Positions 11,475-51,557 of a DNA stretch of 64,000 nt are shown here, piece after piece. The stretch is from Quercus robur (lineage: Eukaryota > Streptophyta > Magnoliopsida > Fagales > Fagaceae). Position numbers and translations under genes: made by a program. Under the pieces are notes generated by a model that saw nothing but the letters and a program-made list of their open reading frames with translations, was not told where the DNA came from and did no database searches. Each line of letters opens with the position of its first letter. Within the stretch, counting starts at the first letter, position 1. The DNA lies in NCBI RefSeq assembly GCF_932294415.1, contig NC_065535.1:87932862-87996861 (forward strand), read 5' to 3'.

Positions 11475-11700
11475 TTACGTGTTAGCTCGAACGGTGGTGA
11501 AGTTGAGCTTCTGTCGAACAAAGGACTACGAGGGTGCCTTTGTCACCGGTGACACATTGTTGCTATTCCAACATAAGTTCCCACTAGGGGCTATGTTCCA
11601 CGGTGTCAATGACATGGGCAAGTCTAGGGGCTTCAAACATCAGGCTAGCTTCCCCCACCTTATTCGAGGAGCTAAACCTTCGGAAGATAAATAAATAAAG

Positions 11701-30500: not shown

Positions 30501-32824
30501 CTCATGAGACACATGCAACAGGTCAGTTTAACAGATTGATTTGGATAACCAAATAAATTTCTGTCACAGTGCTTAACAAAGCTGATTTTATTTTTTTCCA
30601 TTCCATGAGTCAAATATTAGCAGAGGAATTGAATTACCTGCAAGCATGCACACGAACCACCTTTAAGAGTTTCTTGAGATTGTTAATCAGTGTAATCCTC
30701 GCATTAAACACATCATAAGCAACTGGTATGAGCCTCTTGACAAGTAGGCCATTCTTTGGTGGTGGAGCAGGTCGTTTAGGCTGGCCTTTCATCTTCTTGA
30801 CCCTCTCCCTAGCAGCCCGCCTCAGCTCCACAACGGGTACTGGAAATGGCTTTTTCTCCTTCTTTGAATAGTAGCGTGGAAAATCAGCATTTTGAGGAAG
30901 TTCACTCCTGATGACCAATGGATATGATCGACACAAGTTCAGTGATGGACTTCTATACTTCAATGGGAGTTTAATTTTAATGCTACTATGCTGCAAAAGA
31001 ATAAAAGTAGAGTCATGAAGCATAAACATTAGATGGGAAGTTCCTTAAGAGTTACAGTTATATAGGAACAAAAGAGAGTTTCGCACAGGCTAAATTTTCA
31101 AGCTGCTATACAGAAATTGGAGACACTTAATTCTTGATTTTGGCTTGTCAAGAAACAAGCTAACAATCAGAATTGATTGTGTAAAAAGCTTTAACAGAAA
31201 ATCACAGTGATTATTACAGTAGACCCTAAATATGTTATAACTTGAAGCAATGGCACAATATACAAGCTGTGGCTGGGGCTATTTTTCAAGGCCATTACTA
31301 GGAAGTTCACCCAAAACAATAGTTCATTTAATTCAGGTCTTTTCCTTTTTTATTTACTTTTTCCTTCTTTTATCTAGTCTTTTATAAGCACCGGAATACA
31401 TGACTGTGGGCAGGGACGTAGCTATGCTTGGACCAGGGGGGGCAATGGCCCCCCCTGGCCCAATGAGAAAAAGCAAAATATAAATTATATAAAGCTTGGT
31501 TTTGAATTTTCATGCTCCATTTTTGTTCGATACTTCCATGCTTTCACAAAAAGTACACTTTCTTTATTCAAATTTATATTAAATTTTGATTCTTTTTGTG
31601 AGTTTCTATCTAGATTCTAAATGATTTATGAAATTTATCTTAAAGCATTAGCATAGGATAATTGCAGCTAAGTGTTTGATGAAGTTCCCCAAAGAAGCTT
31701 GGGATAAACACACACACACACACACATATATATATTCTTTTATAAGTAGCTTGGATAAAAAAAACATGGTTGTCTTTGGGTTAATCTAGAGGTACAATAT
31801 GAAAGTTTAGGCTATAACAAATTTTTTAAGCATTTGGGTTTGAGTGTATCTCGCCCCCCCTCACTCGAAATCCTAGCTCCGTCCCTGACTGTGGGTAACT
31901 TATTTGGGGGTTTGGAAGACCATAAAATTGGCTAGCCAAGAATATTATAATTGGTTTTTAGTTTTTTTGTGTTTGTCAAATTTTATAAAATATGGAACTG
32001 GTTATCAATTTGTCATGTTTGCATTCAATCTTGGTGCTTAAATGTTTATATAAAAAGAATAAAACACAGTTATCACATGGTTTATAAAAACTACATATAA
32101 ACCGAAACTAGTTCAAGAATAAATTAATTTTCTTTTATAGGTGAGTTCAGTGTTGTTTGCACTAGAACTCGTTGACTTAAAAGGAAAAAAAATGTTTTAT
32201 CTAGTGCCAAAGCTTCCACTTTTGCGGGTCTTGGAGAGGTGATTGGTAGGCACCCTTGCCTTCCCACCCACCCTTTTTTTTTGCAGAGGCTGATTCCTGG
32301 AACTCATTGACTTGAACTTGAACTAATTTTTTTTATTGGTTCAAAACCAGACTGAATTGGTCTTGTGTGTTTGCCAAACACCCTAATTGTAATTGGAAGT
32401 TTGACATACATACACTTACAAGAACAAAAAACAGCAATAACTGACTAATAAGCAATGCCTGAGTGTACAAGTACGGAAATACAGCTGTAAAAATAGAGGG
32501 TCCCTAGAACCTTGCATACGATGAATTGGCTTAAAGCTAGATGGCTAGTACTCCACAATTTTCCCAAATAAAATATCAAGAGCTTTCATCAATGTTTTCC
32601 AATCAAGTGCATTACACAACCAACAAACTGAGCTGTGAATTCTCAACAAGGCATACCTGGAAAGAATCAAGTGAACCAAGACCCCGATGTCGGCTAAGCT
32701 TCAGGTGTTCTGCATTCTTTTGGAAGGAAGCATTTAATGGCCCCACTTTGGGTGTTAGAAACTTTCCTTTACCACACAACAAGACCATTGCGCTATGTGT
32801 AAAGGTTAGAGAACCACAGTCCAT
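27574..32824 (-). CDS. APO4: APO protein 4, mitochondrial RNA-splicing factor
   Basis: The APO family (accumulation of photosystem one) is plant-specific and binds organelle RNA; APO4 is described as a mitochondrial group II intron splicing factor. Coding exons on the minus strand are 32824-32657, 30990-30638 and 28405-27574. They sum to 1353 nt and 450 aa with exact phases (AG joined to C gives Ser-Gly-Cys). A second start, Met at 32788, would give 438 aa. Both predictions are longer than Arabidopsis APO4 as I remember it (about 337 aa), and the extra length is N-terminal. Two zinc-binding APO domains are seen: about residues 168-254 (HACSGCNEIHVGPVGHPF...C) and 338-430 (VRVCGYCPEVHVGPSGHKAQNC). 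The motif PVVELRRAARERVKKMKGQP lies at about 107-126. Exon 1 is less certain; its Lys/Arg-rich, acid-poor sequence suits a mitochondrial presequence. A 5' UTR exon probably ends at 34,121. Confidence 0.9.
28406..30637 (-). other. APO4 intron 2
   Basis: 2.2 kb. It contains a (CTT)n(CT)n microsatellite at 28,666-28,702, a direct repeat of about 48 bp ('aagctgttaggaaatgat', near 29,057 and 29,261) bracketing a GGCCC-containing piece that may be an old LTR scrap, and an AAAAAG-type repeat at 30,301-30,345. Open frames at 29,273-29,710 have no recognisable product. Confidence 0.6.
31411..31887. mobile_element. hAT-type non-autonomous transposon in APO4 intron 1
   Basis: 477 bp. Terminal inverted repeats CAGGGACGTAGCT and AGCTCCGTCCCTG, with a perfect 8-bp duplication ACTGTGGG at 31403-31410 and 31888-31895. 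A C/G-homopolymer pair (GGGGGG...CCCCCC near 31,435-31,456) and a (CA)n(TA)n microsatellite at 31,710-31,732 are inside. No transposase frame. Confidence 0.92.
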
Positions 32825-32845
32825 CCTTAAGACCAAGATAAAACG

Positions 32846-32940
32846 TCTGCTCAGAAACTTTCTAAAACAAGCTTTGAAAGAGTACAGCTTGAGAATTCAC
32901 ATCAATCTCAATATATCTTTTGCTAAATTCTTGCAAAAAA

Positions 32941-32972
<32 letters not shown>

Positions 32973-34120
32973 AACTATTTTAGCTAACCCACATTTCACA
33001 TACACCTGCATCAAATTCTCTATTTTTACTCAATTCCATTTGAATAGTCTTTCTTCATTCTTTCTTTACTATTTTTCCAACCATCACATTTCAAATGGTC
33101 ATATTTTCTCCATTGGTTATAAATTACCTCTAATATTTTATTAACTAGTAAGTTTTATACACACAACATAGTTTCATTTTTCTAAGTTTTAACTCCTAAG
33201 TTTCAAAATTGAAACTCAAAAAAGATTACAAAGAAAGAATTGAGGAACCTGTGCATATACTTAATAATATTTTGAAAATCACAAAAGGTACTTAAAAACT
33301 TTTAAAAGAATCATAAAGTCCAACCAAGAAAGTTGTTGTTTGTTAAGTTAGAGTATCAAAATATGTCATTACATTGCAACCACAGCACACAATCATGAAT
33401 AGCATGTTAGCCCTACTATTTTGAAATAGAGGATCAAAACCAGTCTATTTTGCCTACAAGGACAATGAAAGACATTTGGAAAAGACAATTATTCAGACAA
33501 TTAAATATTTTTTTTGTATTTCAGTCACTATTGATTACTTATTCTCAGTCCCTATTCAGGAACTAGAAGCAGTCCTTAGGATTTGCCTCTTAATTTTACA
33601 CAGGTGAATTCAAAACTATGCTACAAAAGGAGCTAAACATGGACTTTTCTTCCTTTGGAGAGACCATTCTGGACATTTTTAACTAATGGCATTGACAGCA
33701 AGCCAAAAAGGAGGTTCTTTTACAATGAGAACCAAGTTGATTCTAAAACCTCTTTGCAAGAGGAGATAAAAATTGGTTCTTGAAGTTACTTTCACAGACA
33801 CATGCGTTACACAACCAAGTTCAGCTCCAGTTTCTGCTTATGCTAAAAACCCACCACCCCAATTCCTAAAACCGTACACCAACTAAACCAAGACACCATT
33901 AATATGAACTAAAATCAGCTAAAGTCAAATGGGTATGTGCAAAATCAACAAACTTTAGATAAAAACACACCAACACACACTCAGCAGGACATCATAGTAT
34001 CATACATTCATACCCATTATCAAAACGCACAAAAATTCATCATATCACAAAACAAAACAAAATGCAACGATTTTTTTTTTTTGGGATAAACCGAAATGAA
34101 AAAGAGAGAAAGGAGGGCAC
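32846..34120 (-). other. Probable 5' UTR intron of APO4
   Basis: A good donor (AAAAG then GTGCCC at 34121/34120) and a possible acceptor (CTGAGCAG before 32846) suggest a first, non-coding exon at about 34,121-34,200; its own ATG is followed quickly by a stop (M-L-C-stop). A long poly-A tract lies at 32,935-32,973. Confidence 0.55.
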
Positions 34121-34200
34121 CTTTTGGCTAAGTTTTGGAAGCGAGCTTAACAGAGCATGTTTTTGAGTCAGATTTTTGTTTGTGTGGACAACTCTCTGGC

Positions 34201-36450
34201 TGTGGTGGATGAAAAAAGAAAAGGGTGTTCTTGTGATTTAGAAAAAAATGTGAGGGCATTTTTGGACTTCTGTCAAATTCATTGGACCTCTGGGCTGGAA
34301 GCCGGTTTTTTGATGCTGGAAAAAGCCCATTACTAAAGTGGGCTGGGCATGTCCACCTTGGTTTTTCTTTCCTTCCATTTTTAATGGACCAAATCAGAAT
34401 TTTTTTTTTTTTTAAGAAAGAAAAAAAAAGAATAAATTTTTTATATGTTTAAAGTTAGCTTCATGTTCCATATTATGTAATTTTTATCAATTCTATATTA
34501 TTTGATAATTTTTTATTATGTTTTTTTTTTTTAACAAATCACTACTAGATTATATTGTTTTATAATGCCAACCATGCTAACAAAATATTAAAATGATCAG
34601 AAATTAATAACTATCTCATCTATATAATGTTTAAATGTCAAGTTTCTTGAACTTTAAAATTAAACCAAAAAAATGAGTTTATAGATTGGATAGTAAATAA
34701 AATTCATATAAATTTGACATATATGTTAAAAACAAAGATAACATGTAATCAAATGATGAAATTTTAAAAATACAAGTCAATAAAATTTTATGAACTAGTT
34801 TTAATAAGTGTAACTTGATTATGATTCATTTTTCTATTTGAAAAATGGTAAAAAGTAGTATAAGTAAGACTAAGCATGCATGCACACATACACACACAAG
34901 TGGAGGAGAGGATTTGAACCCAAAGTTCTCCATATTGCAAAAGCTAATAATATTAATGAATTACAAGACTATTGACACGGTTATATGGCAATATGTATCT
35001 GTTTACTTAGAAAAAGTACTAGAGTTCTATAAAAAATAAATAAACTAACCAATAAGAAGGAATTTTCTTTAATTTTTCTTCGGGACTTTTCAACACAATG
35101 CCTTTTAAATAGAAATCACCATTTTAGGTAAAAGTGTAAAAATATTGTGAATTATTAAAAAAAGAACAAGATAATTATGTAAATTAGATATTTATACTAT
35201 CTTTATAATATATTTGTAGCTTTATTCTCACTTTGCTAACGATTTTTTCTTCTTTGAATGCTCTTCACTTCTGGAATATTTGAATTTAAGGCATCTAAAA
35301 TTTCTTTTTCCTAAGGGGAGCTCATAATTTTTGGACGGACAAGAGAAAAAAAATATTAATTCTAATAATATTTATATGACAAATTGATAGTTTCTTTTTA
35401 ATTAATTATTTGGGCTTCCGATCATTCTACCTAGTTTCATCTTAATCCACGAAATGACACTTCTCTCAAAAGAGAAAATGACACTCAACCTCTTAAGGTT
35501 TGTATAAATAACAATTCACCCAAATTGAAGGATGTAATTTGTCCCCTACCAAAAAAAAAAAAAAAAAAAAAGAAAGTGTAATTTAGATTTTGACCTATAA
35601 AGTACAATAATTTATAAGAACGCTAAACAATTGTTAGTGCATTTTGTAATAACAAAATTTTGTGCCAGATGGTTTTAATTGTATTAGCATATTCTTATGT
35701 ATTTTATTCATTTTGGGTTGTATTTACATTGGAGACAAGGGGTTCAGGAGCTAATATTAGTATACATGTTTTGGAATTTCGCTCAAGTGAAATTATGGTG
35801 TCAGGCGGATTGCGAACAAAGTGAAAAATATTCAAATAGAGAGTTTCACTTGAAATTAGGTCGAGTGAATTTTCCACTTAGAAAAATTAGTTGGTTTTAT
35901 TTCTCTTATGTTCCTATACAATTACCCTTTTTGTAGTCTTATAAATCCTACGTTTTCCCACCCTATTTCTGAGATGAAAAAGAGAGAGAGCTACCCATTC
36001 CCATAGAGAGAAAATCCCTGTAGCCTCTATCCTTCACCATCTCCAAATTCACATAACTTTGAGAGGAGATTATCCAAACACTCCATATTACCTTTGACTG
36101 ATCTTTGGTTGAGTGATTGGTGTTGGAAATCATAGAGCAATCCCATAAATCCAAGAAGAGATGGTGGCTTGCAGTTGGTGGCTCAACTTGCAGAATCCGG
36201 TGAACTAGTGAGGAGAAATGGCTTGACAAAGTCGGCTGCTAACAAGAGTTTGGGGGGCTTGAATACATTTGCGGTTTTATATATAGTAAGAAAACCGTAC
36301 AAACAACACCGTGTCGCACCATCTATATATATATTAATATATTTATTTTTTTAACATTAAATATATTATTAATAGTTTAATAACCCTATTTTTCAAAAAA
36401 AAAAAAAGTTTATTAACCTTAGCAAGTGTTGATTAGAAAAGCTAGTCCAA
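34201..36450. other. AT-rich intergenic stretch
   Basis: It contains the presumed APO4 promoter side and many A/T runs. Open frames at 35,697-36,354 overlap on both strands, are short and match nothing I know. No gene is supported. Confidence 0.5.
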
Positions 36451-36559
36451 AATAAAGAAAAACTAGTTCAATAGTTTAAAACTTTGCTCAAAATAAAGGT
36501 AAAAATTAGTTTTGGGCTGGGCAGAAAAAACCTAAAATGTGAAAAATATACCAGTTTCA

Positions 36560-36790
36560 AATCATTCAAATTGTATCTTATATATTGCACCGCACATGTG
36601 ATCTCAAAAATGAGGTGCGATGCGGTTATGGTTTTGGCTAAACTTTGAACTGCACCAAACTGCACTGCACTGCACATGTAATTGCAAAAATGAGGTGCGG
36701 TGCAGTTATAGTTTTAGCTATACCGCATCGTAAAGTGCTGTGCTAAAAATGGCCCAAAACCGCATCGCACTGCACCGTGAACACTCCTAG
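36560..36790. repeat. GCGGTGCG-type MITE fragment
   Basis: It carries two diverged copies of 'aaaatgaggtgcggtgcagttat' about 84 bp apart (36,607 and 36,690), then ACCGCATCGCACTGCACCGTGAACACTCCTA, an end typical of plant MITEs that start 'taggggtgttcacggtgcgg'. I could not identify the other end. Confidence 0.5.
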
Positions 36791-37640
36791 TCACTACATA
36801 GCTTGGAAGGTTTTGTGAGTTGATATGTATTGCAACTACTTTCACTAGTGGATTCATTACTAACTGGACTCGGAGAGTTTTTGCCTGATTTGGGTTTTCT
36901 TTCTAGCATAACATTGTTTGTCAATGATATGATTTTTGGGATTGTTTACTGTTTCAGTTTATTTTCATGCAATTGTAAATGAGCAAATCTATCAATAGGG
37001 CTTAAATTGTTAATTTGTTTAAAAATTGGTAATAAGACATAATTAGGGTTCTAAACAAGCATTAATTATCACATGTAAAAAATGGGAAAATACTAAAACT
37101 ATTGCAAATTTTACCACCTAATAAATAAATGTCTAAATTACTTTATATCTATGGAATGAAGGACTACACATCAAGAAATAATATGCTCAAAGTACTCTGA
37201 ACACCCACGTTAGTGAGGGGAAAAAAAAAACCATGCAAAAGTAAAAAGAAATAGATTAAAACTGGTTGATCATATTTAAATGTATTTGAACATCAAATAT
37301 AACAAGCCAATCCTTAACATGTAATATTTATTTTTCACAAGTTCATGTCTCTCTTTTGCATCCTTACCAAAACAAAGCAAAAGAACGATTGTTAGGGTAC
37401 TTTTTTTTTTTACACCTAAGTTTATTTGAGTATCACCTATTTATTTTCAAACACCACTAATAAGTTATTGGGTTTTCCCAAATATTTTTTGCTCTATTAT
37501 TATGTTAATCACAAATGTTTCATATCTCATTATTTAAATTGAGTTATGATATAAAATATCACAAAAAAACCTGAAAACTCATATTATATCCAATTTTATT
37601 ATCATTATTTAGCTAAGCCCAAAACCGGCCCTATGAACCT
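36791..37640. other. AT-rich intergenic stretch
   Basis: No gene, RNA or defined element recognised. Confidence 0.5.
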
Positions 37641-37789
37641 AATAAACACATCCTATTCTATTTAAAGCCCAAGAATATTTGGCAATATTTGAAAAGCCCA
37701 TGATTCAAATCCATGACAAAACAATTTTATTAATGGAATTCAAATCCATAATCAAAACCTATGGTTTAAACCCATGACAATTTATTTAT

Positions 37790-38150
37790 CCAAAACTCAA
37801 TTCACATTAACAATATCAAAGCCCAATTCTCATTGGCAATATTAAAACCCAGTTCTCGCTAGCAATATTTAAAACCCAATTTTTATTGGCAACATCAAAG
37901 TCCAATTCTCATTGACAATATCAAAGCCCAGTTCTCGCTGGCAATATTTAAAACCTAATTCTCATTGGCAATATCAAAGCCTAGTTCTCGCTGGCAATAT
38001 TTAAAGCCCAATTTTCATTGGCATCATCAAAGCACAATTCTCATTGGCAACATCAAAACCCAATTCTCATTGGCAACATCAAAGCCTAATTTTTATTGGC
38101 AACATCAAAAGCCTAACTTACGTTGGCACTATTAAAAACCCAAGCTAACT
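37790..38150. repeat. Degenerate minisatellite, unit about 27-28 bp
   Basis: About 12-13 copies built on 'aaagcccaattctcattggcaatatc', with two alternating versions ('ttctcattggcaacatc' and 'gttctcgctggcaatattt'). Looser 'cccatgg' repeats continue to about 38,790. The downstream 38,800-39,085, with several GGCCCA and CCCAAG motifs, looks like internal DNA of an old LTR-type element cut off by the inverted repeat. Confidence 0.75.
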
Positions 38151-39102
38151 ACTTGATACTATTTTATCAAAAGTCCAAGGTTATTAATACTTGGCAAAAT
38201 ACTATATCATAATTATTTCACTTAAAAGTCCAATAATGAACAATACTTTAGATTCTTAAACCTATAATATTACAAGCTCATGGAATTTATGAATTATCTA
38301 TTCTCAAAACCCATGGCAATCATCTTATAAAAGCCTATGGAAAGTTATGATTATTAGACCCATGACATTTATTTATTTCATGTTATAAACTCATGTTCAC
38401 TATCTATCTTACATCACAACATTCATAATGTTTATTACCAAAACTCATGGTAATTATTCATCCTACTTGTCCATTATGATTATCTATAGAGAAACTCATG
38501 AGAACATCACATTATTCCACTATAGTGGTTGTTACCATATTTATTTAAAACCCATGGTAAATATTATTCTCAAGAACAATATTGGAGGTCATTATTTAAA
38601 GAGCCCCAAAGAAAATATCATTTACAAAGTAATCCATAGCAAAAATTATGAGAAACTATACAAGTTATTGTTTAAAGCCCATGGAAATTAATACCCAAAA
38701 TCTATTATAAATATTTATTAAAGCTCATGGATTCATTTTATTTCTACTAATAACTAAAACTCATGAGGAGCAAAAAACCCATGGCAAAGCATGTCTTTAA
38801 TGCCTATTTTGTAGGCCCAAGAATCTCATGGAGTAAAGAACAAGCCCAAGCAAAGAAAGGGCCACGTGGCTCGACTAAAAGTGTTGAAATGGAGCAAAGT
38901 TCTAGCCCAAAAAAGGTCCCCAGCAAGAGGCTTGAAAGTGGGCAACCAACCCTTGTCCATCCCTAACCAAAAAACAACTAGAGACCCACAAGAGAACCAA
39001 GCTTTTGAGGATGAACTAGGGGTTATCGCATCAGTTTTCTGCCACCTTCTACTTGATGTGAACAGTGCCCAAGGGCTGTCATATCGGCTGAAGTCTGAAG
39101 GA

Positions 39103-41302
39103 TAATAAATTACTAACAATATAGATTGAGGATATTTCTAATATAAAAAATTACATTATTGAATCTGAAGTATCTTCGGATGTATTCCAGAATTTTCAAC
39201 GTTAAAATGAAATAATATCACGACTTTCTTATATATAAAAAATTACAATATTGAGCTATGTGATCAAATAATTGAATAGTTTAATTAATTAGTGTATTTT
39301 ATGAATTCTTTAATTTGATTCTATTTCAGTTTATAATTTAGATACCATGATAATATCTACATTTCACTGATGTTTTGAAGACAAATAGATTTATAAAATC
39401 TAATAAAAATTCAAATAAATTATAATTCAATTCCCCTGCGAGAACCAAACGAAGTCCAGACTCAATTCCCACGCCAAATTTAGCTGCAAATGGAACTACT
39501 TCACATTTGGTGATGTTGAAACTTGCACATGAATAATGCATATGCTTCTGTGAAGTTAATCTTTGTGGCCAACAAAATTTACGAAAACGTCAAATTGAAT
39601 TCAAAGTTGAATCAGGGTTTATGGTATATTATATCATTGGGCCAATAACAAAAAGATAGCAAAATCTTGGCATCTTATCTCTGTTATGATATCTTATAAC
39701 AGGTTACAGGTGTGAGAAACTTACCCCTAAATATATACTAGGACAAGCGGCGGGCTGTTTCATATCATTGTTATGATATCTTATTTAAATCCTCTACATT
39801 TTTTAAAGTACTCTACCAAATAGATTTCTTTCAATCTTAACCATTCTTTAATGATTTAATGGTTTAGATTTTGCTATGTCAACATTTCACTAATAATAAT
39901 CTTAATTGTTTTATTTGTAACATTATTTTATTATTTTAAGAGTATTATTAGTGGAATGCTGACATAACAGAATCTAGATCTTTAAATCATAAAAGAGTGG
40001 TTAGGATTTAAAGAAATCTATTAGTAGAGTACTCTAAGAAATCTAGAAGATCTGATAAGATATCATAATAGTGATATGGAACAGCCCGCTTGTCATGGCA
40101 TATATTTAGGAGTAAGTTTCTCGCACTTGTAAACTGTTATAAGATATCATAACAGAGATAAGATGCCAAGATTTTGCTATCTTTTTGTTATTGGCCCAAT
40201 GATATAATATACCGTAAACTTTGATTCAACTTTGAATTCAATTTGACGTTTTCGTAAATTTTGTTGGCCACAAAGATTAACTTCACAGAAGCATATGCAT
40301 TATTCATGTGCAAGTTTCAACATCACCAAATGTGAAGTAATTCCATTTGCAGCTAAATTAGGCATGGGAATTGAGTCTGGACTTCGTTTGGTTCTCGCAG
40401 GGGAATTGAATTATAATTTATTTAATTGAATTTTTATTAGATTTTATAAATCTATTTGTCTTCAAAACATCAGTGAAATGTAGATATTATCATGGTATCT
40501 AAATTATAAACTGAAGTAGAATCAAATTAAAGAATTCATAAAATACACTAATTAATTAAACTCTTCAAAGATCACATAGCTCAATATTGTAATTTTTTAT
40601 ATATAAGAAAATCGTGATATTATTTCATTTCAACGTTGAAAATTCTGGAATACATCCGAAGATACTTCAAATTTAGGAGTAAGTTTCTCGCACTTGTAAA
40701 CTGTTATAAGATATCATAACAGAGATAAGATGCCAAGATTTTGCTATCTTTTTGTTATTGGCCCAATGATATAATATACCGTAAACTTTGATTCAACTTT
40801 GAATTCAATTTGACGTTTTCGTAAATTTTGTTGGCCACAAAGATTAACTTCACAGAAGCATATGCATTATTCATGTGCAAGTTTCAACATCACCAAATGT
40901 GAAGTAATTCCATTTGCAGCTAAATTAGGCATGGGAATTGAGTCTGGACTTCGTTTGGTTCTCGCAGGGGAATTGAATTATAATTTATTTAATTGAATTT
41001 TTATTAGATTTTATAAATCTATTTGTCTTCAAAACATCAGTGAAATGTAGATATTATCATGGTATCTAAATTATAAACTGAAGTAGAATCAAATTAAAGA
41101 ATTCATAAAATACACTAATTAATTAAACTCTTCAAAGATCACATAGCTCAATATTGTAATTTTTTATATATAAGAAAACCGTGATATTATTTCATTTCAA
41201 CGTTGAAAATTCTGGAATACATCCGAAGATACTTCAAATTCAATAATGTAATTTTTTATATTAGAAATATCCTCAATCTATATTGTTAGTCATTTATTTC
41301 AT
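39103..41302. repeat. Large inverted repeat with 0.8-kb arms and an internal 567-bp duplication
   Basis: The left arm, 39103-39903, is the reverse complement of 39938-40671 and, for its outer 65 bp, of 41236-41302; the loop is only about 34 bp. In the right arm 40105-40671 is repeated at 40672-41238 with almost no differences (period 567). Arm-to-arm identity is about 95 percent by eye, lower than between the two tandem copies. A shared frame (ASFNITKCEV...GIESGLRLVLAGEL) occurs in every arm copy but is unassigned. It is possibly a foldback transposon; I saw no clear target-site duplication. Confidence 0.92.
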
Positions 41303-41501
41303 TGAGGATATTCAAAAGAATATTTGCTTTTATTTATTTATTGAAAAGGTAGAAAAACATTTACATCATGATAAATTGATAATCTTTTCATATCTCCGAA
41401 GTTCAAGTTCACATCTCTCTTCTGCAATCTGCAGCATTCACACAAGATAAACTCATAATAAAAGTACAAGTTCACATCCTTCTCCTCTTCACACATGTCC
41501 C

Positions 41502-42705
41502 TCAAATAAAAAATATTCTCACCAAACTCAAAATTCCCACAACAATACCAAAAAATCCACCCCTCAATCCAAACGCACCAGCTGTTAGTGGCTGAGACAA
41601 TGGTGCTGGACTTGATGCAGGATTCTTTGGTGGAGGAGCCGGTTGTGCTGGACTTGGTGCAGGACCCTTTGGTGGCGGAGGCAATGTTGCTGGACTTGGT
41701 GCAGGACCCTTTTGTGGCGAAGACAATGGTGCTGGACTTGATGCATGACCTGGTGGCGGAGGAGGCTTAGGATGCTTGTGCAACACAACCACAGTCAGCT
41801 TCTGGCCTTTCTCACAGCTCACCACAGCGTTACTTATGAAATAGAATGGTCCTGACCTGTCCAACTCTACTTTGGTGTTGACATCCGTATGTTCTTTGAT
41901 TGGATTTGATACGTAGCATTTATCGTAGTCATCCTTTGTCACTTCAAGTACTGAGTCAATCAAGGGGTCGGATTCATCAAAGACTGAGATTCAAGAAAAT
42001 GAAGAAATTGTGGTTATACGATTGAGAAAAAAGTGGAACATCAAAATAAACCTTACGGATTATATAAAAGAGCAATATGCATTAAAATGAGACCCCAATC
42101 TTTTTAAAATAAAATAATAATTTTCTACACAAGCATGCATCATGCACGAACTGGGTTTTCAATTTCTCGTCAAATGGGGTTCATTTATTAAGCAAAGACG
42201 TGAATAAATCCAGTTTGTAAATATAAATTATAACCCTAACAAAGAGGATTAAGAAAATCAGAATCGAATCCATATTCCCATTATTATAACTATCAAAATT
42301 TATAAAATAAAAAATGCCCTAACAGTCTAACCAAATAACACCATTTCTTTTCTAAAAAAAAAAAAAAAAGAAGCAAATTTCAAAAAAATTATCCAAAGAA
42401 AAAAAAAGTTTAACAGTAATATTTCTAAATACAGTTTTTAATCCTAAATTAATCTTATTTTCAAAAAATTGAAAAGTAAGTTGTACAAAGCATCAGACTA
42501 ATCTCAACAAATGAGAGAGAGAGAGAGTACTAAGAATATCGCCAACTTCAAATCGCTCTTTCTGAGCCCAGCCATTAAGAGAGTCTGAAGAAGTTGGAAA
42601 ACTCCATGAATTTTCATGGCCTCCAACCACAAACTCTCTAGCTTCAGAGAAGGTAAACAACACAATCAAGAGGGTGATTGGAATAACAATTTTCAGGGAA
42701 GCCAT
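41502..42705 (-). CDS. ENODL: Early nodulin-like protein (phytocyanin family), GPI-type
   Basis: A cell-surface glycoprotein of the plastocyanin-like family. Exons on the minus strand are 42705-42531 and 41983-41502: 657 nt and 218 aa, phase 1 at the join. A signal peptide of about 22 residues (MASLKIVIPITLLIVLFTFSEA) precedes the phytocyanin domain (about 23-122: REFVVGGHENSW, KERFEVGD, DDYDKC, GPFYFIS, SCEKGQKL). The disulfide cysteines are present and the copper ligands absent, as in ENODLs. Residues 125-190 form a Pro/Ser/Ala-rich arabinogalactan-type region with repeats such as KGPAPSPA, and the hydrophobic tail fits GPI anchoring. The segment after the intron, IFDESDPLIDSV, departs from the usual VWKYD...DSV, so the domain core is unusual here. 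An intron acceptor CTCAG and donor GTACTC are seen. The first Met at 42738 is less likely than that at 42705. Confidence 0.92.
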
Positions 42706-42788
42706 TGATATATTCAAACACAGTGAACACTGACCCAAATGCTACACTGACTTGTACTGATCGAGAAACAAAGGTAGGGTTTTTGGCC

Positions 42789-42798
42789 CTCTTTATAG
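42789..42798 (-). promoter_or_regulatory. TATA box of the minus-strand ENODL
   Basis: Reads GGCTATAAAG on the minus strand, about 85-95 bp upstream of the ATG at 42705, followed by the family-typical short leader. Confidence 0.65.
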
Positions 42799-42975
42799 CC
42801 CTTAGGTTCAGTTTAAGACCATGGCTCGGTTGTTGGTTCGGAGTACTCGAAGCTGCTCATGAGTGCCACGTGTGAAACACAACTAGTCACAGTTGTACGT
42901 ATAATTGGATTCTGATTAACCCTGGGCTGTAAACGTGAACCGGTTTTGTTTGTTTTCCAAGAAAAGGGGATTCAA

Positions 42976-43399
42976 GCATTTTACCTTATTTTTTAAAAAA
43001 ATTTAGTAATACGTCTCTATTTTGAAACTATTTAGGATTAAACTTGATTTTGAAAATCGAGTTTCAATGTAAAACTCGATTTGTAGAAAATCGAGTATGG
43101 GGCGATCAAACTTAAAAAAAAAAAAAATGCAACTCGAGTTCATGGAGCTTGAATTCCAATCAAAGTACTCGAGCTACAGGAACTCAAGTTCCACTATTTT
43201 TTTATTTTTTATTTATTTTTAAGTTTCATTTGGCATAACTCGATTTTAAACAAATCGAGTTTTACATTAAAACTCGATTTTAATAAAATTGAGTTTCAAA
43301 ACAGGGACATGAACCTAAATAGTTTCAAAAAATAAGAGCATAAAAATTTTCAAAACAGGAATATATTGTTAAATTTTTTTAAAAATAAGGGCATAAAGC
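42976..43399. mobile_element. Foldback-like MITE rich in ACTCGAG/AATCGAG motifs
   Basis: 424 bp. The ends are reverse complements over about 150-190 bp with gaps (GCATTTTACCTTATTTTTT against the complement of GCTTTATGCCCTTATTTTTA). Both arms contain 'gaaactatttaggtt/attaaac', 'aatcgagttt' and 'gtaaaactcgattt'. It sits between the two ENODL genes. No clear target duplication. Confidence 0.75.
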
Positions 43400-43966
43400 T
43401 AGAATTCCTAGGAAAAGTGCCTCTTCATGTTTATTAGATGACTTAAACATAAAAATACCCTTTCAGGTTTGATAGTATTACAATCAATTATTGCATCAAT
43501 CATGTAACATATGCCACTTTCCCAGATAAAATTTAAGGGTTACATGGGGAATTAGGATGAGAAACTTGTTACTATTAACGTGTTAATTAATAAAGGATTA
43601 ATTTTTCCATGCTGATTTGGAAAATGAACTGGTCTTTAAGCTATGGATAGGATACTATGTATGAACATTAGTGAAATCGTATAATGTCAGTAATAAATTA
43701 TTATTAATGAGATCTACTTAATCTAATTGACTAGTGAAAATTGAACGAATCTGTTTTGTTTTTAACGTCAATTATGACTGGACTGTGTCCTATTATATTA
43801 TAGTATAAGTTATCTCTTTATTAATTATCCTTAAAATTGTTATTTGGCTTATTTCAAATTTTAATCTAAATTAAAGTGAACTCACTGGCCTGTTTCTTTT
43901 TTTGAGAGGGCTGTTATTGTTAATTGAAATATAGCAATATCTTAAATCCCCTTTTCTCCCCTTTTA
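43400..43966. other. Spacer between two MITEs
   Basis: AT-rich, no gene recognised. Confidence 0.5.
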
Positions 43967-44311
43967 GAGCATCCGTAGCAGATGTTCCAAAAATTATGTC
44001 ATTTTACCACATCAAATGCCTACTTTATTATTTTATCACATCATTTTACAACATCCCATTTATCAGATGTTTTATAATTCAATTCTATACATTAAAATAA
44101 TATTTACTACTCATCAACACAATAAACAAACAACAAACAATATACCACATCTCTTCCGTACCGTGGCAAATTTGCCACGGTACTGTTCAATGTTGCAAAA
44201 AAAAAAAAACAATATCCCACATCTACTAAATGGGCTAAAATTGGGTTTGGTGTGGGATATGTGCCAAATATTTAGCATTTGGCACATATCCCACATCTAG
44301 TGTGGGTGCTC
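43967..44311. mobile_element. Tourist-like (PIF/Harbinger) MITE
   Basis: 345 bp. Terminal inverted repeats GAGCATCCGTAGCAGATG and the complement of GAGCACCCACACTAGATG, with a TTA target-site duplication (43964-43966 and 44312-44314), the PIF/Harbinger signature. Inside are the perfect palindrome ACCGTGGCAAATTTGCCACGGT (44,161-44,182) and another near 44,262-44,296 (gggatatgtgcc...ggcacatatccc). Confidence 0.85.
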
Positions 44312-46045
44312 TTACAGTGATAACTTGTGGTCGCTTTCTATTAATTTGCGTGCCCCAAATATTCAAAATTACCAAAAGCACTTTCATTATAAATTTTTCT
44401 TAAATGAAAAACATGTTTTTTTTGGGGGGGGGGGGGGGGTTGGTATTAGCTTTTGCGTACATAATGATGCTACTAGATAGCGGAGATTTCCTGAATGTGA
44501 GTTGCTCTTAGATACCCTTAGGCTTGCTATATATCATCATATACTACTAGTATCTGAGCACGTGCGTGTTTAGAGATTCTTCAAATTTTTTTTTTTTTTT
44601 GGTAAAAGTTAATAATTTACATATATTATAATTTAGAAATATATATATTTTTATTTTTCAAACAAATAAAAAGGATAAACTTTAGAGATAAGCTTTGAGA
44701 GGTATTACGTCTATAACATTTCCACAATAAATCAGAGGTAGTTAGTTGTTATTGATTCAAATTTGAATTTATCATTTAAATTATTTTTTTACCCCACCAT
44801 TAACAACTTGTACCAACTTGCTACATAGAATTTGTTGTGAAAATGTTGTAGACATAGCATTTGCTACGTTGACAACATTTTCACAACAAATCAGAGGTGG
44901 TTAGTTGTTGTTGATTCAAATTTATAAGAGAGTTTCCAGTATATTATTGTTGGCTTTGAGGTGGTCCGGCCACTTGATTAGAAAACTGGAAAACAGTGAA
45001 GCGAAGAAAGGGAAAATAGGGGAGGAGAGAGAGTGTGGGGTTGAAGCCAATCCTAACTCTCTCTTTTTTTTTTTTTTTTTTTGGCATAAGAATAAATAAA
45101 ATCCAATTAAAAATGACATGGAAACTTTATAATTAAATAGCTGATATGGCATAGGACACTTAAGTTGCCATGTCAGTTTGTAAATGCCTGCAGTAAAATT
45201 ACAAATGCCATGTCACTTTTCCGTTAGCCACATAAGTAATACTTTTAACAGAAGTTAGCCGAAGGACTAGTACCGCTCATTTTTTAAACTTTATGGATTA
45301 ATAGTGCTCACTTGAAACTTAAGAAACTAATTGCGCTCACATGATAAACTTTAAGGACCAATAGTGTAGTTTTGCAAAAAAAAAAAAAAAAAATTAATTA
45401 AGGGGATCTATTTGCTATAATATCAAAGTTTATATACAAATTGGCTAAAATAAAATTACATTGTGTAAATGATTTTAATTAATAGCTACTAAGTGAAAGT
45501 TTATTTTGGTTGTCTCTCTTGTATCACTTTCTTTCTCTCTTTTATTTTGAATCATAAAGATTGGTTTAATAAGTTCTCCTACAAATGTAACAACTTATTA
45601 AAGTAGTAAATTAAAGTGATAGATTATCACTTTCACATATACCCTCACTTTTTTCTACAACTATAGTTGATCACCTCAACAAGATATAGCAAAAGTTGTA
45701 AATACTTCATCTATTTTAATAGGGTAAATACTAGTACATAATTATTACACACAACCGTACATACACACTTTTGCATTGAAATCATGACTTGAATTCAAAA
45801 CTTTTTGAACTGAAATTGTGATTTTAAATCATGAATTGAGTGTAAAAAGTATAAGTGTATGGTTGTGTACAATAACAAGTGTGAAATAAACACAATCCAT
45901 TTTAAGAAGCCCAGGTCTGAAATGGGTCCACCGGATCTCGAACGTTAAAATGACAGGGAGAAAGCATAAAGATGATGCGGCGGCAAACCACTTTGTCACC
46001 TACTTTCAGAACCTGCCGTAACGGCTAGTTTTCTTTATTGTGCCA
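44312..46045. other. Repeat-rich upstream region of the plus-strand ENODL
   Basis: It contains a G-run at 44,424-44,439, a duplicated 'aaatcagaggtagttagttgtt' block (44,730 and 44,888), and at about 45,080-45,390 a repeat-like segment with 'gccatgtcag' and 'ttaaactttaaggacc' motifs ending in poly-A. No gene is supported. Confidence 0.5.
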
Positions 46046-46055
46046 CTATATAAAC
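46046..46055 (+). promoter_or_regulatory. TATA box of the plus-strand ENODL
   Basis: CTATATAAAC, about 75-85 bp before the ATG, followed by a CT-rich leader. Confidence 0.75.
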
Positions 46056-46128
46056 AGGCCACAAAGGCCTCCTTCTCCTCACTACTCTCTCTCTGTCTCT
46101 TAAAAATCTTAAAAGAATTATATCCACC

Positions 46129-46774
46129 ATGGCTTTACACAGAGCTCTACTATCTTCAATGTTGTTCATATCTCTCTTCATTTCCTTCACAGAAGCTAGA
46201 GAATTATTAGTCGGGGGCAACAGCAATGCATGGAAAATCCCATCCTCAGAATCTGAATCCCTCAACAAATGGGCTGAAGCCTCACGTTTCCAAATTGGAG
46301 ACTCGCTAGGTACAAACACAATCCCTAAAATTTACATTTTTTTTTTTTCACATTTCCTCATCTGGGTCTTGTTTATTTGATTCAAGAATTTGCATACTCA
46401 TCTGGGTTTTGTTTTGCTTTACAGTTTGGAACTATGATCCTAGCAAGGACTCTGTGGTCCAAGTGAGCAAAAAAGACTATGATAGTTGCAGTACTTCCAG
46501 TCCTATTGCTGTATACAAGGATGGGAACACCAAGGTCAAGCTTGACAAGTCAGGACCTTTCTATTTTATCAGTGGAGCTGACGGCCAATGTGAGAAGGGA
46601 CAAAAATTGGTGACTGTGGTGTTGTCTGGAAGGCATGGATTCTTCCATCTTTCTCCGGCACCTTCTCCGGTGGAATTTGAAGGCCCTGCTGTGGCTCCAA
46701 CCAGCGGTGGTACAAGTTTGAGGGGTGATTTCATGGTGATTTTTGGGGTTTTGGTGGGGTTTCTGTTGTTCTGA
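46129..46774 (+). CDS. ENODL: Early nodulin-like protein (phytocyanin family), second copy
   Basis: A cell-surface phytocyanin-like glycoprotein. Exons are 46129-46309 and 46425-46774: 531 nt and 176 aa. The join falls inside the Val codon (CTA G then TT TGG gives L-V-W), the same intron position as in the minus-strand copy. The signal peptide is about 23 residues (MALHRALLSSMLFISLFISF...). The domain is canonical: RELLVGGNSNAWKIP, NKWAEASRFQIGD, VWNYDPSKDSVVQVSKKDY, TKVKLDKSGPFYFISG, QCEKGQKLVTVVL. It lacks copper-binding His ligands, as ENODLs do. The Pro-rich tail is short (SPAPSPVEFEGPAVAP) and the hydrophobic end (GDFMVIFGVLVGFLLF) fits a GPI signal. It is divergent from the copy at 41.5-42.7 kb, 3.4 kb away. 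The ATG context CACCATGG is strong. Confidence 0.95.
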
Positions 46775-47976
46775 GGAGGAGACGGAGATAGTTTTCTAAT
46801 AGTTCTAGTAATTGGTGGAATGATTCAATTTATTGGTTGTAATTGATTTACAGGGACATATTTATGTTCTCAATTTTTATTTTGTAACAATTTTTTTTTT
46901 TTTTTTTGTAATTGATTTACAGGGACATATTTATGTTCTCAATTTCTATTTTGTAACATTTTTTTTTGAGATTACAGTTAAAATATAATTATGAATGATA
47001 TTTATTCTTTTAAATCGTCCTCAGTATGATAAAATTAGAATTAGCAACACATATAGTAGCAATCAAAAGATTCAAACTCGTCCTCCATTTTGCATGCGTT
47101 TATTTGCAAATCAGAAGTCTGAACACTCGAAATATGTATGGGTCTGAAGTCAACAATTACTGTTAAACTATGGCCATCTTGGAAAACATTGGGAAACATG
47201 AATTCTGGGATCTGAAGCTTTGAATCCTAAGTCCTAACATAACACAACCCGTCAACGCGACAAATTTAAGTCTTCTACATGGATCACAACTCCATTAATA
47301 TAGTTTACCAAAAAAAAAAAACAACTCCATTAATAAAACATGCTCCATTCACCACATCAATAAATCATTCTTCAACACCAAATAAAACATCATATCATTC
47401 TGCACTTCTTGGATGCAAAAAAATACGATTGACAGGACTTTATAAAGCCACAACTTTCAATTTGTCACCCACAACTTTTAAGCACACAAAGCTCATCCAT
47501 CAGCATTACAAAACCAATCATCTTCCTTGATGAGGACCATCACAAAATTTGGATGTAAAGCACACAAAGCTCCATTACATCACCCTGAGAACTTCAACTT
47601 CTATCCAGATTAATTCTTAGAAACAATTTATACTTTAACCAAGAGTGAATACTTACAGAGTTTAGCACAAAAGTCTTCTTTAGTAATTTTATTCTATTGC
47701 TTTTGACCAAAATTCTGAATGCATTATTTTTAACCCAGCCTCAATATGGGCATTATATGGGTGCATGTGTACAAGTGGGCTCACACACACACACACACAC
47801 ACAGAGGACTCACAATGGAACAGATCAAATAACACAATAAATTTCAGCCACAAGGGATTTATTCACCTCCAACAAGTCATGGGGTCATGGGATTACACAC
47901 AAGTTCAGCAGCAACATAAATGTCCATAACTGACAGACAAACAGTAAGCAATGAAGGATGAAACTAGAACACATTC
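46775..47976. other. Intergenic between ENODL and the SRP receptor gene
   Basis: A block of about 47 bp ('gtaattgatttacagggacatatttatgttctc') of the ENODL 3' UTR is repeated at 46,838 and 46,908. A (CA)n microsatellite lies at 47,783-47,802. The right end holds the SRP receptor 3' UTR (minus). No other gene is seen. Confidence 0.6.
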
Positions 47977-49470
47977 TCATTTAAGGAGGGTCTTGACAAT
48001 TGATTTGACATTGAGTTTCTTGAGGTCTGTATATGACTGCCCACAGCCAACAAACATGACTGGTGCCCCAGATATGTAAACCATTGAAAGTGCAGCTCCA
48101 ACCTATAACATGAGCAGTTACAAACAATAACATCAATCAACAATTGTAGACCATGAACAGGATAAAAGAATCAAGCAAGAGAAAATCTCAACACTCCTTG
48201 CAGTTTGAAGAGTGACTACCTTATCATCAATTGTATCAAACTTTGTGAGCAAGATCCCATCTATCAACCTGGCACTAGGTGAAGATGAAAGGTCGGCTAA
48301 TTTCTGCAGGCACAACAAGAAACATAGTTCAGATAACTTCTGATAAAATAATGATTGAACAGATCATGTTTTAAAAAGAGCCGGAAAACAATTTATGCAA
48401 TCCTGGATAAAAAAATCAAACCTGATCGAATTTGGAAAGTTGATCAACTGCATCATTTCCAACCAGTGCCTCTCCAACAAACAAGACCAGATCTGGCTTG
48501 TTAAGGGAAATAAGCTTTGAGAGTGCTCTCATCAATGGTTCATTATCCTGAAAAGCATACAAATTGTATCAGAGCAAAACAACAAAGAAAGAACATGTAA
48601 GAAATACTTATATAGCCCTGTCATACACATAATTAGAATTATACATGTAGCATAGAACACTACTAAATCTTTCTGATAATACCAGCTAAGCATGATACCT
48701 GCATTCGACCGGCTGTATCAACAAGAACCACATCAGAACCATTGCGTGTTGCCTCCTGGATGGCTTCCTTTGCAACTACGGCAGGATCTTTCTCATAGCC
48801 CTTCTCAAATATAGGGATCTTACAAGAGGAAAAGATAACAAGTCAGTTATCAAAATCCACCATGCAATTATGATATATTGAGTGAACATTAATCCTCCCT
48901 GAGTAATGCTAGAGACCATGGTAACCCTATGCTACATCAAATATTATACCTGGAGTCTTCGTGCATGAGTGCGCAGCTGCTCAACAGCTCCCGATCGGAA
49001 TGTGTCACAAGCAGCCATCATGACACTGACCTTATGCTGCTGAAGCCAGTAGGCAACCTGCAAAGTGATTTTTGAAAGAAACTATCTGATCAAAAGCAAT
49101 ACCATTTTATCTGTGTGCCCACAGGACATACATATATAAATACACACGAATGCAAACTCTACTACAGAGGATAAGGGGGTTAAGCTTAAACTTTGCTAGA
49201 TTGGTAAAGTTCCCATGAAAAAACAACACATCGCAAACCTTGGCAAGATTAGTAGATTTCCCAACTCCATTAACACCGACAAAAACAACAACGTATGGCT
49301 TCCCTTGTTCCTTGGCGACGTGCACATCCCTTAGTATGTCAATAGAGCGCCGTGGTGTTAGAATACGAACAAGAGCTTCTTCCATAGCTGCCTGCAGTCA
49401 TTGTTTCAAGCCATGATGTTAATCTTATTACAGTGTGAAATAATAAGAAACCAATTGGTTCAGATTAAGC

Positions 49471-49511
<41 letters not shown>

Positions 49512-51557
49512 CATTCACAAACCTGCACTGTTGAAGATACCCTTGTGAATGAAGCCAACTTTTTCCCTTCAAGACTAGCTGCCACTGATTCACAGAGTTT
49601 CTCAGCTATCTCCTCAGCCTATGAACATCATAACATGAAACTTCCATTAGAAGGCTCAGCGAGACTGAGAAGAACCAACAAAATAGAGACGAAACATATG
49701 TAGACCACAGTAGCGGGAGGAGAAACATACCACATTCTTGGTCATAAGCCTATCCTTGAGAGCTTTCAAAGCTGGTTCCAGGTCTGACTTCTCCAAATTT
49801 GCTTTGCCCGCAATGCTGAGCACAGGAAAGTAAATAAATGATAAGGCAAGTATCTGCTAATTTCAAAAAAAAAATTCAATGAAAACGGATATGGCAGCAC
49901 AATAGTTGCAACATTAAAGCCATTTACATGCTGGAGACCTGAAGTTGACAGTTAATCTTAGGGTTATTCTAAACTACAAAAATATAGAGGAAATATTTAG
50001 CCATCATTAAGTTAAACCTAAGGAAGCACCCTTGTAAACTCCAGCATTTAAAAAATAAATGAATAAATAGAAATAAAAAATTAATCCAATCTATAAGACA
50101 GATATATTATTGTCACAGGAAGCAGTCTGAATCTGAAAAAAATTTCAACAGAAGATAAAAAATAAATGAATAAATAGAATTAAAAAATGAATTCAATCAA
50201 TATGACAGAAAATATTATTGTCACAGGAAGCAGTCTGAATCTGAAAATAATTTCAACAGTTAATTTCAACAGAAGTATATTAACCGATGCAATGCTGGTG
50301 GGCACTGACAACCAAATACGAGCCATCTAAATTCTTGTTCAACCATTTACATTGAATAATTGAAATAAATGTCTGGAAAAAGATCCTTGCCTAAGGGATT
50401 TTTCCCCCCCACTCCCCAAAAAAAAAATCTTGCATAAAACCCAAGCAACATCCTTGAACTGAATATCTCTAAAGCAACTACAAAATGCAATAATAAGCAG
50501 AAGTTTAAAAAATAGAATTAGACATAATCAACTCAACTAAGTCATAAATGCACATAACTATAACAAAGGATTGAGATCAATAAATTTACCTTTGGAACAT
50601 TGATGAAAACCACCCCTTCTTCTTAGTTTCAGGTTTGCTGTCCTTCCCCACTTCCTCATCTTCTTCAGACTCACTTTCACTGCTAAGGATCTCTTCCTTG
50701 TCCATCATACTTTCACCATGATCTGCTGCAACAACCTCTATATGATCTCCATTCTCACCCACAGAATCCGTAAAGTCCAATTTTTCCTGACGAGGCGAAT
50801 CGTCCCAAACTCTATTCTTCTTTGTTACCTTTTTCTTCAGCTCTACCTTGGAGCCCTTGCTAACAACAGTCTCTGTTTTCTTCCCACCTTTAGTTCTAAG
50901 CTTCTGAAGCTTATTTACATCAAAAGCCCCACCATTGGAACTTGTATTTTCTACACTGTTAACCGAACCATTCACCTTAGATCCACCAATATCAACATGA
51001 TTGCCATTGGAGTGGCCATTCTCCAATTTACCACCTTTCCTATTATCACCATCCCCACCATCATTGGCTGAAGCACCCTCACTCTTTTTCATATTTCCTC
51101 CTTCAAATCCAGTTTTTTGCACCTGCCCTTGCTTCTTACCATTACTTAAAGGCTTGCTCACCTGCTTTGATTTCTTCAATTCCTCAGCCCGAGCCTCAGC
51201 CTCTTTTCTCAGTTGCCTAAATGTTTCGTCAAAATCATTGTAAACCGTCCGTTTCGGGTCATAAATTTCCGAAAACTCACGCTTCACCATTGCAAGCAGT
51301 TCATCTACATACAACAGATGAAGGATCCGCTGATACACAGCAACAAAAACAAGGCCAAGCTCATTGTGGAAGGTCCACTTCAGCGTGTAAGCGGCACCTG
51401 GGCCATCATAGTTGTATGATGCTGCACTAGATCGTTCTTCCAAAAGACAAGACTGGATCAAGTTGTCAATTGGTGATCCCTTAAGAGCGTTTATAAGCTC
51501 TTTACATGACCAGAGGATTAATCCCCCTCGAGTAAATATTAGTAACTGCTCTAACAT
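47977..51557 (-). CDS. SRPRA: Signal recognition particle receptor alpha subunit
   Basis: A GTPase on the ER membrane that receives the SRP-ribosome complex. Nine coding exons on the minus strand: 51557-50590, 49815-49731, 49618-49523, 49391-49239, 49057-48950, 48818-48699, 48547-48422, 48303-48220, 48102-47977. They total 1866 nt and 621 aa; plant homologues are about 630. The N-terminal longin-like SRX domain covers about 1-130 ([16 protein letters not shown]), followed by a Lys/Asn/Gly/Ser-rich linker (about 135-315) and then the SRP54-type NG domain. Its motifs are GVNGVGKST (P-loop, about 422-430), [11 protein letters not shown] (452-462), DTAGRM (G3, about 504-509) and TKFD (G4, 572-575), with the end [10 protein letters not shown]. 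All introns are GT-AG. A 5' UTR intron runs 52096-51577. The family and all GTPase motifs are intact. Confidence 0.97.
49472..49507 (+). repeat. (GA)n microsatellite in an SRP receptor intron
   Basis: About 18 GA units between coding exons 3 and 4. Confidence 0.9.
49816..50589 (-). other. SRP receptor intron 1
   Basis: Contains a short direct repeat: 'attattgtcacaggaagcagtctgaatctgaaaa' at about 50,107 and again at 50,214 (period 107). No gene. Confidence 0.75.

What the first reader, a model, noticed from the sequence alone, without database searches (positions are those of the whole stretch)
39103..41302. Near-perfect 0.8-kb inverted repeat with a 34-bp loop and a fresh 567-bp duplication
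The arms are long, the loop is tiny and the arms are about 95 percent alike, so any transcript across it would fold into a long double-stranded hairpin that Dicer-like enzymes could cut into small RNAs. The 567-bp tandem copy inside the right arm differs at roughly one site, so it is far younger than the hairpin itself, or it is an assembly artefact. No transposase gene and no clear target duplication was found. It lies 200 bp from the 3' end of the minus-strand ENODL gene, so read-through could transcribe it.
Basis: partly seen in the sequence, partly recalled or inferred. Interest (0 to 1): 0.72.

Follow-up and report, generated by a model that had tools for sequence, protein, structure and literature searches.

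The report
Plant hairpin seeded by mobile element
Next to a plant gene, an old copy of a small, common mobile element sits at the centre of a long mirror-image repeat whose arms have no close copy found elsewhere in the genome, so this is probably a local folding-back copying accident that grew in steps rather than a transposon, and whether the cell makes small silencing RNAs from it is unknown.

Summary
In detail: inverted arms of about 0.8 kb (39104-39905 / 39936-41298; 750 of 792 aligned sites identical), a 30-nt loop, and a 567-bp tandem copy with one difference. Only the central ~279 bp is dispersed, a Mutator-like MITE (39 other copies examined; target duplications of 8 bp or more in 24 of 39 against 1 of 234 shifted controls). 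None of the 39 has comparably inverted flanks. Divergence has a step: 13/594 outside, 10/75 beside the MITE, 16/109 within it. Best reading: the MITE hairpin primed fold-back copying of unique flanking DNA, probably in two rounds, before a recent tandem duplication. A transcript would fold almost end to end, but siRNAs and methylation are inferred, not shown. ENODL has poly(A)-like signals before the repeat, so read-through is uncertain.

The parts
39104..39702 (+). outer left arm, no close copy elsewhere, 2.2% diverged from its inverted partner
   Evidence: 13/594; this locus plus one 97-bp 77% piece on C4; 3 of 3 first-look candidates scored
39703..39780 (+). inner left flank of the MITE, found only here, about 13% diverged from its inverted partner (10/75)
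   Evidence: differences counted by hand from the list; interval; uniqueness (3 of 3 candidates scored)
39781..40059 (+). old copy of a dispersed ~279-bp Mutator-like MITE, the core of the hairpin; loop 39906-39935
   Evidence: no intact target duplication (longest exact repeat 6 bp); possible degenerate 9-mer pair 39772-39780 / 40056-40064, 8 of 9 alike
40060..40133 (-). inner right flank, inverted partner of 39703-39780 (limits approximate)
40134..41298 (-). outer right arm, including the tandem duplication (inner limit approximate)
40104..40670 (+). first copy of the 567-bp tandem duplication
40671..41237 (+). second copy of the 567-bp tandem duplication, with the private change at 41179; 3-bp ATT microhomology at the junction
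41301..41312 (+). 12-mer just outside the right end, an inverted copy of 41266-41277; could be a template-switch footprint, but 4.7% of control places do as well
   Evidence: 912 of 19255
41329..41342 (-). three overlapping AATAAA signals after the ENODL stop and before the hairpin
41502..42705 (-). neighbouring early-nodulin-like gene (plastocyanin-like domain) in two exon-like frames; the start at 42705 is inferred from the frame, splicing not tested
   Evidence: PF02298: E 1.2e-12 for one frame; 0.0023, below the curated cut-off, for the other

Best explanation
This is a local inverted duplication of otherwise unique DNA, seeded by an old MITE, and not a transposon as a whole. A ~279-bp Mutator-like MITE, itself a hairpin, lay downstream of an ENODL gene. 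At a break or stalled fork a 3' end folded back on the MITE hairpin and copied the flanking DNA outward, replacing the far flank with its mirror image. The divergence step suggests at least two rounds: an early one (about 75 bp, about as diverged as the MITE halves) and a later one (about 600 bp, 2.2%). A recent 567-bp tandem duplication then lengthened one arm. If transcribed, it would give an RNA with about 0.8 kb of duplex and a bulge of about 567 nt; the likeliest consequence is processing by Dicer-like enzymes into siRNAs that methylate the locus in cis. Shown: anatomy, dispersal of the core, no close copy of the arms found, three divergence classes, predicted fold. Inferred: fold-back synthesis and its order, transcription, siRNAs, methylation.
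For: Query 39103-39900 hit 39 other places, all within its last ~133 bases (40 of 322 candidates scored). The outer arm and the inner flank gave only this locus plus one 97-bp 77% piece (3 of 3 candidates scored in each). The MITE family carries exact direct repeats of 8 bp or more at its ends in 24 of 39 copies (9-10 bp in 17, 8 bp in 6, 14 bp in one AT repeat), against 1 of 234 shifted controls with the same search freedom. The window copy has none intact, and its flanks are inverted instead: inverted-repeat score 416 against 15-41 in the 39 others. The symmetry centre coincides with the MITE. Divergence: outer 13/594, inner flank 10/75 (Fisher p = 6e-5), MITE halves 16/109 here and 6-23% in 38 others. 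The anatomy fits the fold-back model of PMC3907307 (abstract read: unduplicated spacer bounded by short inverted sequences) and the yeast finding that natural inverted repeats near a break drive inverted duplication (PMC10622511, abstract read). On siRNAs, a review says about 486 of 634 gene-proximal Arabidopsis inverted repeats make 24-nt siRNAs (PMC12595863, passages read).
Against: No relative without the palindrome was available, so order and direction are not shown. The step from 13% to 2.2% could also come from later conversion between arms. A degenerate 9-mer pair (8 of 9) at the MITE leaves open insertion into an older palindrome. The footprint-like 12-mer at the right end is weak (912 of 19255 control places). 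CpG is not depleted in the repeat (observed/expected 0.70; median of 600-bp windows 0.39), which gives no support to long-standing methylation. ENODL poly(A)-like signals precede the repeat. About 280 further MITE candidates were not scored, so how unusual this copy is rests on 39.
Confidence: 0.6

Rival explanations
1. An older palindrome existed first; the MITE inserted near its centre with a 9-bp target duplication, and recent conversion between the arms homogenised only the outer 600 bp.
For: Possible degenerate target duplication, 8 of 9 bases. Without the MITE the flanks would form a near-zero-spacer palindrome centred on GATATC (read). Arm homogenisation by template switching is reported in yeast (PMC8604942, abstract read). 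The inner flank is about as diverged as the MITE halves.
Against: A random insertion would have to hit the centre of a ~1.3-kb palindrome within about 9 bp (my estimate). Six of the nine matching bases follow from the self-palindromic GATATC. The converted tract would have to run to the arm's outer end and stop about 75 bp short of the core.
Confidence: 0.22
2. A foldback or long-TIR Mutator-like transposon with 0.8-kb termini and one terminus repeated in tandem, like the multiple-TIR MULEs of PMC3310237.
For: Long inverted ends with one side duplicated; the core belongs to a family with Mutator-like target duplications.
Against: No target duplication at paired outer ends (the 10-bp exact repeat ATTGAGGATA found there lies at places whose ends are not inverted repeats). 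No dispersed copies of the arms. No transposase-like frame.
Confidence: 0.03
3. A functional hairpin-RNA gene that silences another gene in trans.
For: Predicted end-to-end fold (-1257 kcal/mol for 2195 nt). A natural inverted-repeat locus acting in cis and trans is known in Arabidopsis Cvi-0 (PMC13213937, abstract read).
Against: No other close match of the arms in the genome beyond a 97-bp 77% piece, and no match of the 83-aa frame better than E = 1 outside the locus. Only the MITE family offers many similar sites. 21-24-nt matches were not scanned.
Confidence: 0.05
4. Assembly artefact, of the whole repeat or only of the 567-bp tandem copy.
For: Fold-back read chimaeras exist (recalled); the tandem copies are 566/567 identical, and a single difference could also be a merged allele.
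Against: A fold-back read would give nearly identical arms, not 2-15% divergence. The contig is 98 Mb long. For the tandem copy the evidence is thin.
Confidence: 0.1

Closest known systems
Fold-back inverted duplications (human, PMC3907307; yeast, PMC10622511 and PMC7467729; abstracts read)
   Same: Inverted copy of local DNA beside a spacer bounded by inverted sequences; explained by 3'-end fold-back priming.
   Different: Interstitial and small (about 0.7-kb arms outside the core), in a plant, with a MITE as the putative priming hairpin and signs of two rounds; no sign of a terminal deletion or dicentric was looked for.
Gene-proximal inverted repeats of Arabidopsis that make 24-nt siRNAs (PMC12595863, passages read)
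   Same: An inverted repeat within 3 kb of a gene, containing a Mutator-type MITE.
   Different: Here most of each arm is DNA with no other close copy; siRNAs and methylation could not be examined.
Mu killer of maize (PMC3440606, abstract and passages read)
   Same: Inverted duplication beside a gene, proposed to give a long hairpin RNA.
   Different: Its arms are transposon sequence and it silences that transposon in trans. That paper reports that its silencing individuals had antisense transcripts starting inside the locus, while read-through transcripts appeared in individuals that failed to silence.
MULEs with multiple TIRs (PMC3310237, abstract, passages and section 4.2 read)
   Same: One side of an inverted pair is duplicated in tandem.
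   Different: Here the duplicated stretch is not a terminus of the mobile element.

Membership tests
Foldback / long-TIR Mutator-like transposon (whole 2.2 kb) | target-site duplication at paired outer ends | tested here: not met
   at ends that are inverted repeats, only two 4-bp repeats (TATA, ATAT) and a palindromic 12-mer with 2 mismatches; a 10-bp exact repeat (39125-39134 / 41301-41310) is not at paired ends
Foldback / long-TIR Mutator-like transposon (whole 2.2 kb) | dispersed copies with the same ends | tested here: not met
   this locus only, plus one 97-bp 77% piece (3 of 3 candidates scored in each); a first-look search can miss very diverged copies
Mutator-like MITE (core, 39781-40059) | short, dispersed, with terminal inverted repeats and no protein match | tested here: met
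   39 dispersed copies, about 279 bp in most, halves inverted; only sub-cut-off Pfam matches (best E 0.077) in two short core frames
Mutator-like MITE (core, 39781-40059) | about 9-bp target duplication in the family | tested here: met
   exact repeat of 8 bp or more in 24 of 39 (9-10 bp in 17), 1 of 234 controls; not intact in the window copy; that 9 bp is the Mutator hallmark is recalled
Mutator-like MITE (core, 39781-40059) | mobilised by a Mutator-type transposase | not tested
   no autonomous partner was searched for
Fold-back inverted duplication | arms are otherwise single-copy local DNA | tested here: met
   within the limits of the search
Fold-back inverted duplication | inverted sequences bounding an unduplicated spacer at the symmetry centre | tested here: met
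   MITE hairpin with 30-nt loop at the centre
Fold-back inverted duplication | microhomology or templated bases at the outer junction | tested here: inconclusive
   12-mer inverted match, reached by 912 of 19255 control places
Fold-back inverted duplication | ancestral, non-inverted allele | not testable with these tools
   no relative of this genome is held
Hairpin-RNA / siRNA locus | a transcript would fold into a long duplex | tested here: met
   prediction only
Hairpin-RNA / siRNA locus | transcription and 21-24-nt small RNAs from the arms | not testable with these tools
   no sequencing reads available
MULE with multiple TIRs | the tandem unit is a terminus of a mobile element | tested here: not met
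   the unit 40104-40670 lies outside the MITE and stops short of the repeat's outer end

The most novel reading that the evidence does not exclude
MITEs act as seeds from which plants grow long hairpin loci out of unique DNA in successive fold-back rounds: a birth route for long-hairpin siRNA or proto-miRNA genes that needs neither gene duplication nor transposon amplification. This locus would show the layers: MITE, first inversion, second inversion, fresh tandem duplication.
Probability: 0.3. Interest if true: 0.6.

Novelty: new member of a known kind. Interest (0 to 1): 0.38.

Why it matters
It turns an apparent foldback transposon into a layered palindrome in otherwise unique DNA with a MITE at its centre. 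If MITEs often seed such palindromes, that is a testable route to long hairpin-RNA loci beside genes, and the divergence layers make the order of events readable. In this family it was not seen in the 39 other copies examined; about 280 further candidates were not scored.

Tried and rejected
Rejected: foldback transposon (no target duplication at paired outer ends, no other copies of the arms found). Arms from a host gene: the 83-aa frame has no Pfam match up to E = 1, other frames of arm and core only matches below the curated cut-offs (best E 0.077), and in the genome only this locus plus one match at E = 1; PDB search gave only galectin matches at E 0.13 or worse, taken as chance. Known RNA family: seven sub-threshold Rfam matches in 30000-50000, none inside the repeat. 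Plasmid records: no match. Viral contigs: one exact 34-base pattern, no match. The 97-bp match on C4 lies at the end of a frame that looks like a retroelement RNase H by my own reading, not by a search; too short to explain the arms.

Looked for without support: a template-switch footprint at the right end (912 of 19255 control places reach it); a methylation-decay signature (CpG not depleted; arm differences are 9 transitions and 4 transversions outside, 21 and 8 inside, and could not be polarised). In the flank test, 8 of 39 copies slightly exceed the best of 20 shuffles (highest 41 against 36, an AT repeat) and one ties; in one copy (L025) the right end was not found, so its flank and target-duplication values mean little, and it was dropped (38 of 39 used). 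The divergences from the majority sequence include about 20 flanking columns and are therefore somewhat too high. Some MITE copies are local duplicates of each other, so the 39 are not all independent.

Literature on MITE-seeded palindromes: seven searches listed 20 of 434, 15 of 92, 15 of 143, 10 of 107, 10 of 90, 9 of 11 and 12 of 37 papers; none describes this in its title or the opening lines shown. This is no claim of absence from print.

Full report
OBSERVATION. Direct reading and repeat search confirm a long inverted repeat between 39104 and 41298 with a 30-nt loop at 39906-39935. With one copy of the tandem duplication set aside, 792 aligned sites give 750 identities and five small gaps. 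The longest exact duplex stretches are 118, 88 and 80 bp. The 567-bp unit at 40104-40670 recurs at 40671-41237 with one difference; the left arm matches the first copy there, so the change belongs to the second. The duplication junction shares 3 bp (ATT) between its parents, little evidence on its own.

A STEP IN DIVERGENCE. The arms are not equally alike along their length. A change-point analysis puts the break at 39703: 2.2% outside, 14.7% inside, reached by 0 of 1000 permutations. The outer arm has 13 differences in 594 sites (95% interval 1.2-3.7%). The 75 aligned sites between the break and the MITE have 10 (6.6-23%), counted by hand from the list. The tandem copies have 1 in 567 (up to 1.0%).

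THE CORE IS A DISPERSED MITE; THE ARMS ARE NOT. The window lies in an assembly of 785,749,727 bases in 42 contigs. A search of it with 39103-39900 returned 64 matches from 40 scored of 322 candidates. Three are this locus; the other 61 are halves of 39 dispersed elements and match only the last ~133 bases of the query. All 39 were fetched. Most show a ~279-bp hairpin element with ends close to GGATTCAGATCC. In 24 of 39 an exact direct repeat of 8 bp or more sits at the ends (9-10 bp in 17, 8 bp in 6, 14 bp in one AT repeat), against 1 of 234 shifted controls. Several copies are local duplicates (three share one target sequence on C5 and a fourth differs by one base), so they are not all independent. 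A 9-bp target duplication is typical of Mutator-like elements (recalled). The window copy differs from the majority sequence at 45 of 299 columns, flanks included; the 38 others at 7-16%, so it is an old copy. Searching the outer arm alone gave 3 candidates, all scored: this locus and one 97-bp piece at 77% on C4. The inner flank gave only this locus. The 83-aa frame of the arm found only this locus and one match at E = 1. The tool warns that its first look can miss sequence, so 'single-copy' here means that no other close copy was found.

WHAT SETS THIS COPY APART. In none of the 39 other copies do the two 250-bp flanks resemble each other's reverse complement to a comparable degree: local scores 15-41, against 416 here. 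The window copy has no intact target duplication; the longest exact repeat is 6 bp, the self-palindromic GATATC by my reading of the flanks, although a 9-mer pair with 8 of 9 bases alike lies at 39772-39780 and 40056-40064. The mirror symmetry of the flanks thus begins at the end of the MITE.

INTERPRETATION. The simplest history is MITE insertion, fold-back copying of a short flank, a later second fold-back extending the arms by about 600 bp, then a tandem duplication. The fold-back step matches the model in PMC3907307 (abstract read), where short inverted sequences bound an unduplicated spacer, and PMC10622511 (abstract read), where natural inverted repeats near a break drive inverted duplication. 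Order and direction are inferred. The main rival is an older palindrome later hit by the MITE and partly homogenised (PMC8604942, abstract read, for arm homogenisation by template switching).

FUNCTION. A transcript of either strand is predicted to pair 39104-39265 with 41137-41298 and 39272-39905 with 39936-40568, leaving the extra copy as a bulge. Whether it is transcribed is unknown. The stop codon of the minus-strand ENODL gene lies 203 bp away, and three AATAAA signals at 41329-41342 lie before the repeat, so its messages may well stop short. A review says that about 486 of 634 gene-proximal inverted repeats in Arabidopsis make 24-nt siRNAs (PMC12595863, passages read), so cis siRNAs are a reasonable expectation, not a result. 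Trans silencing is unlikely beyond the MITE family because no other close match of the arms was found; 21-24-nt matches were not scanned. CpG is not depleted in the repeat (observed/expected 0.70 against a median of 0.39 over 600-bp windows), which does not suggest long-standing methylation, though counts are small.

CONTEXT. The window carries plant-type gene fragments: acyltransferase, APO RNA-binding, two plastocyanin-like (ENODL-type) genes and the N-terminal part of SRP receptor alpha. The species was not identified.

VERDICT. The MITE-centred, layered palindrome in otherwise unique DNA is the interesting part; it is a member of a known kind of rearrangement with an unusual seed.

Noticed in passing
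42967-43408: A second, more diverged hairpin (arms 80 nt at 81% and 68 nt at 75% complementary) lies about 260 bp upstream of the inferred ENODL start, so the gene has inverted repeats on both sides.
   Followed up: no
41505-42705 and 46310-46771: Two plastocyanin-like (ENODL-type) genes in opposite orientation, about 3.6 kb apart between the listed frames.
   Followed up: no
11697-13379: Tandem array of 21 copies of an 80-bp unit at 97% matches, between two direct repeats 99% alike and 5.7 kb apart (10833-11132 and 16575-16874), possibly an LTR element.
   Followed up: no
37791-38143: Degenerate 26-bp tandem array left of the hairpin, within a 2-kb flank of low CpG (observed/expected 0.23).
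   Followed up: no
L027, L028, L029, L041 (C5, 57.13-57.30 Mb): Three MITE copies share the same 9-bp target sequence and a fourth has it with one change in one flank, pointing to local segmental duplication there; L009 and L011 on C5 near 21.7 Mb share one too.
   Followed up: partly
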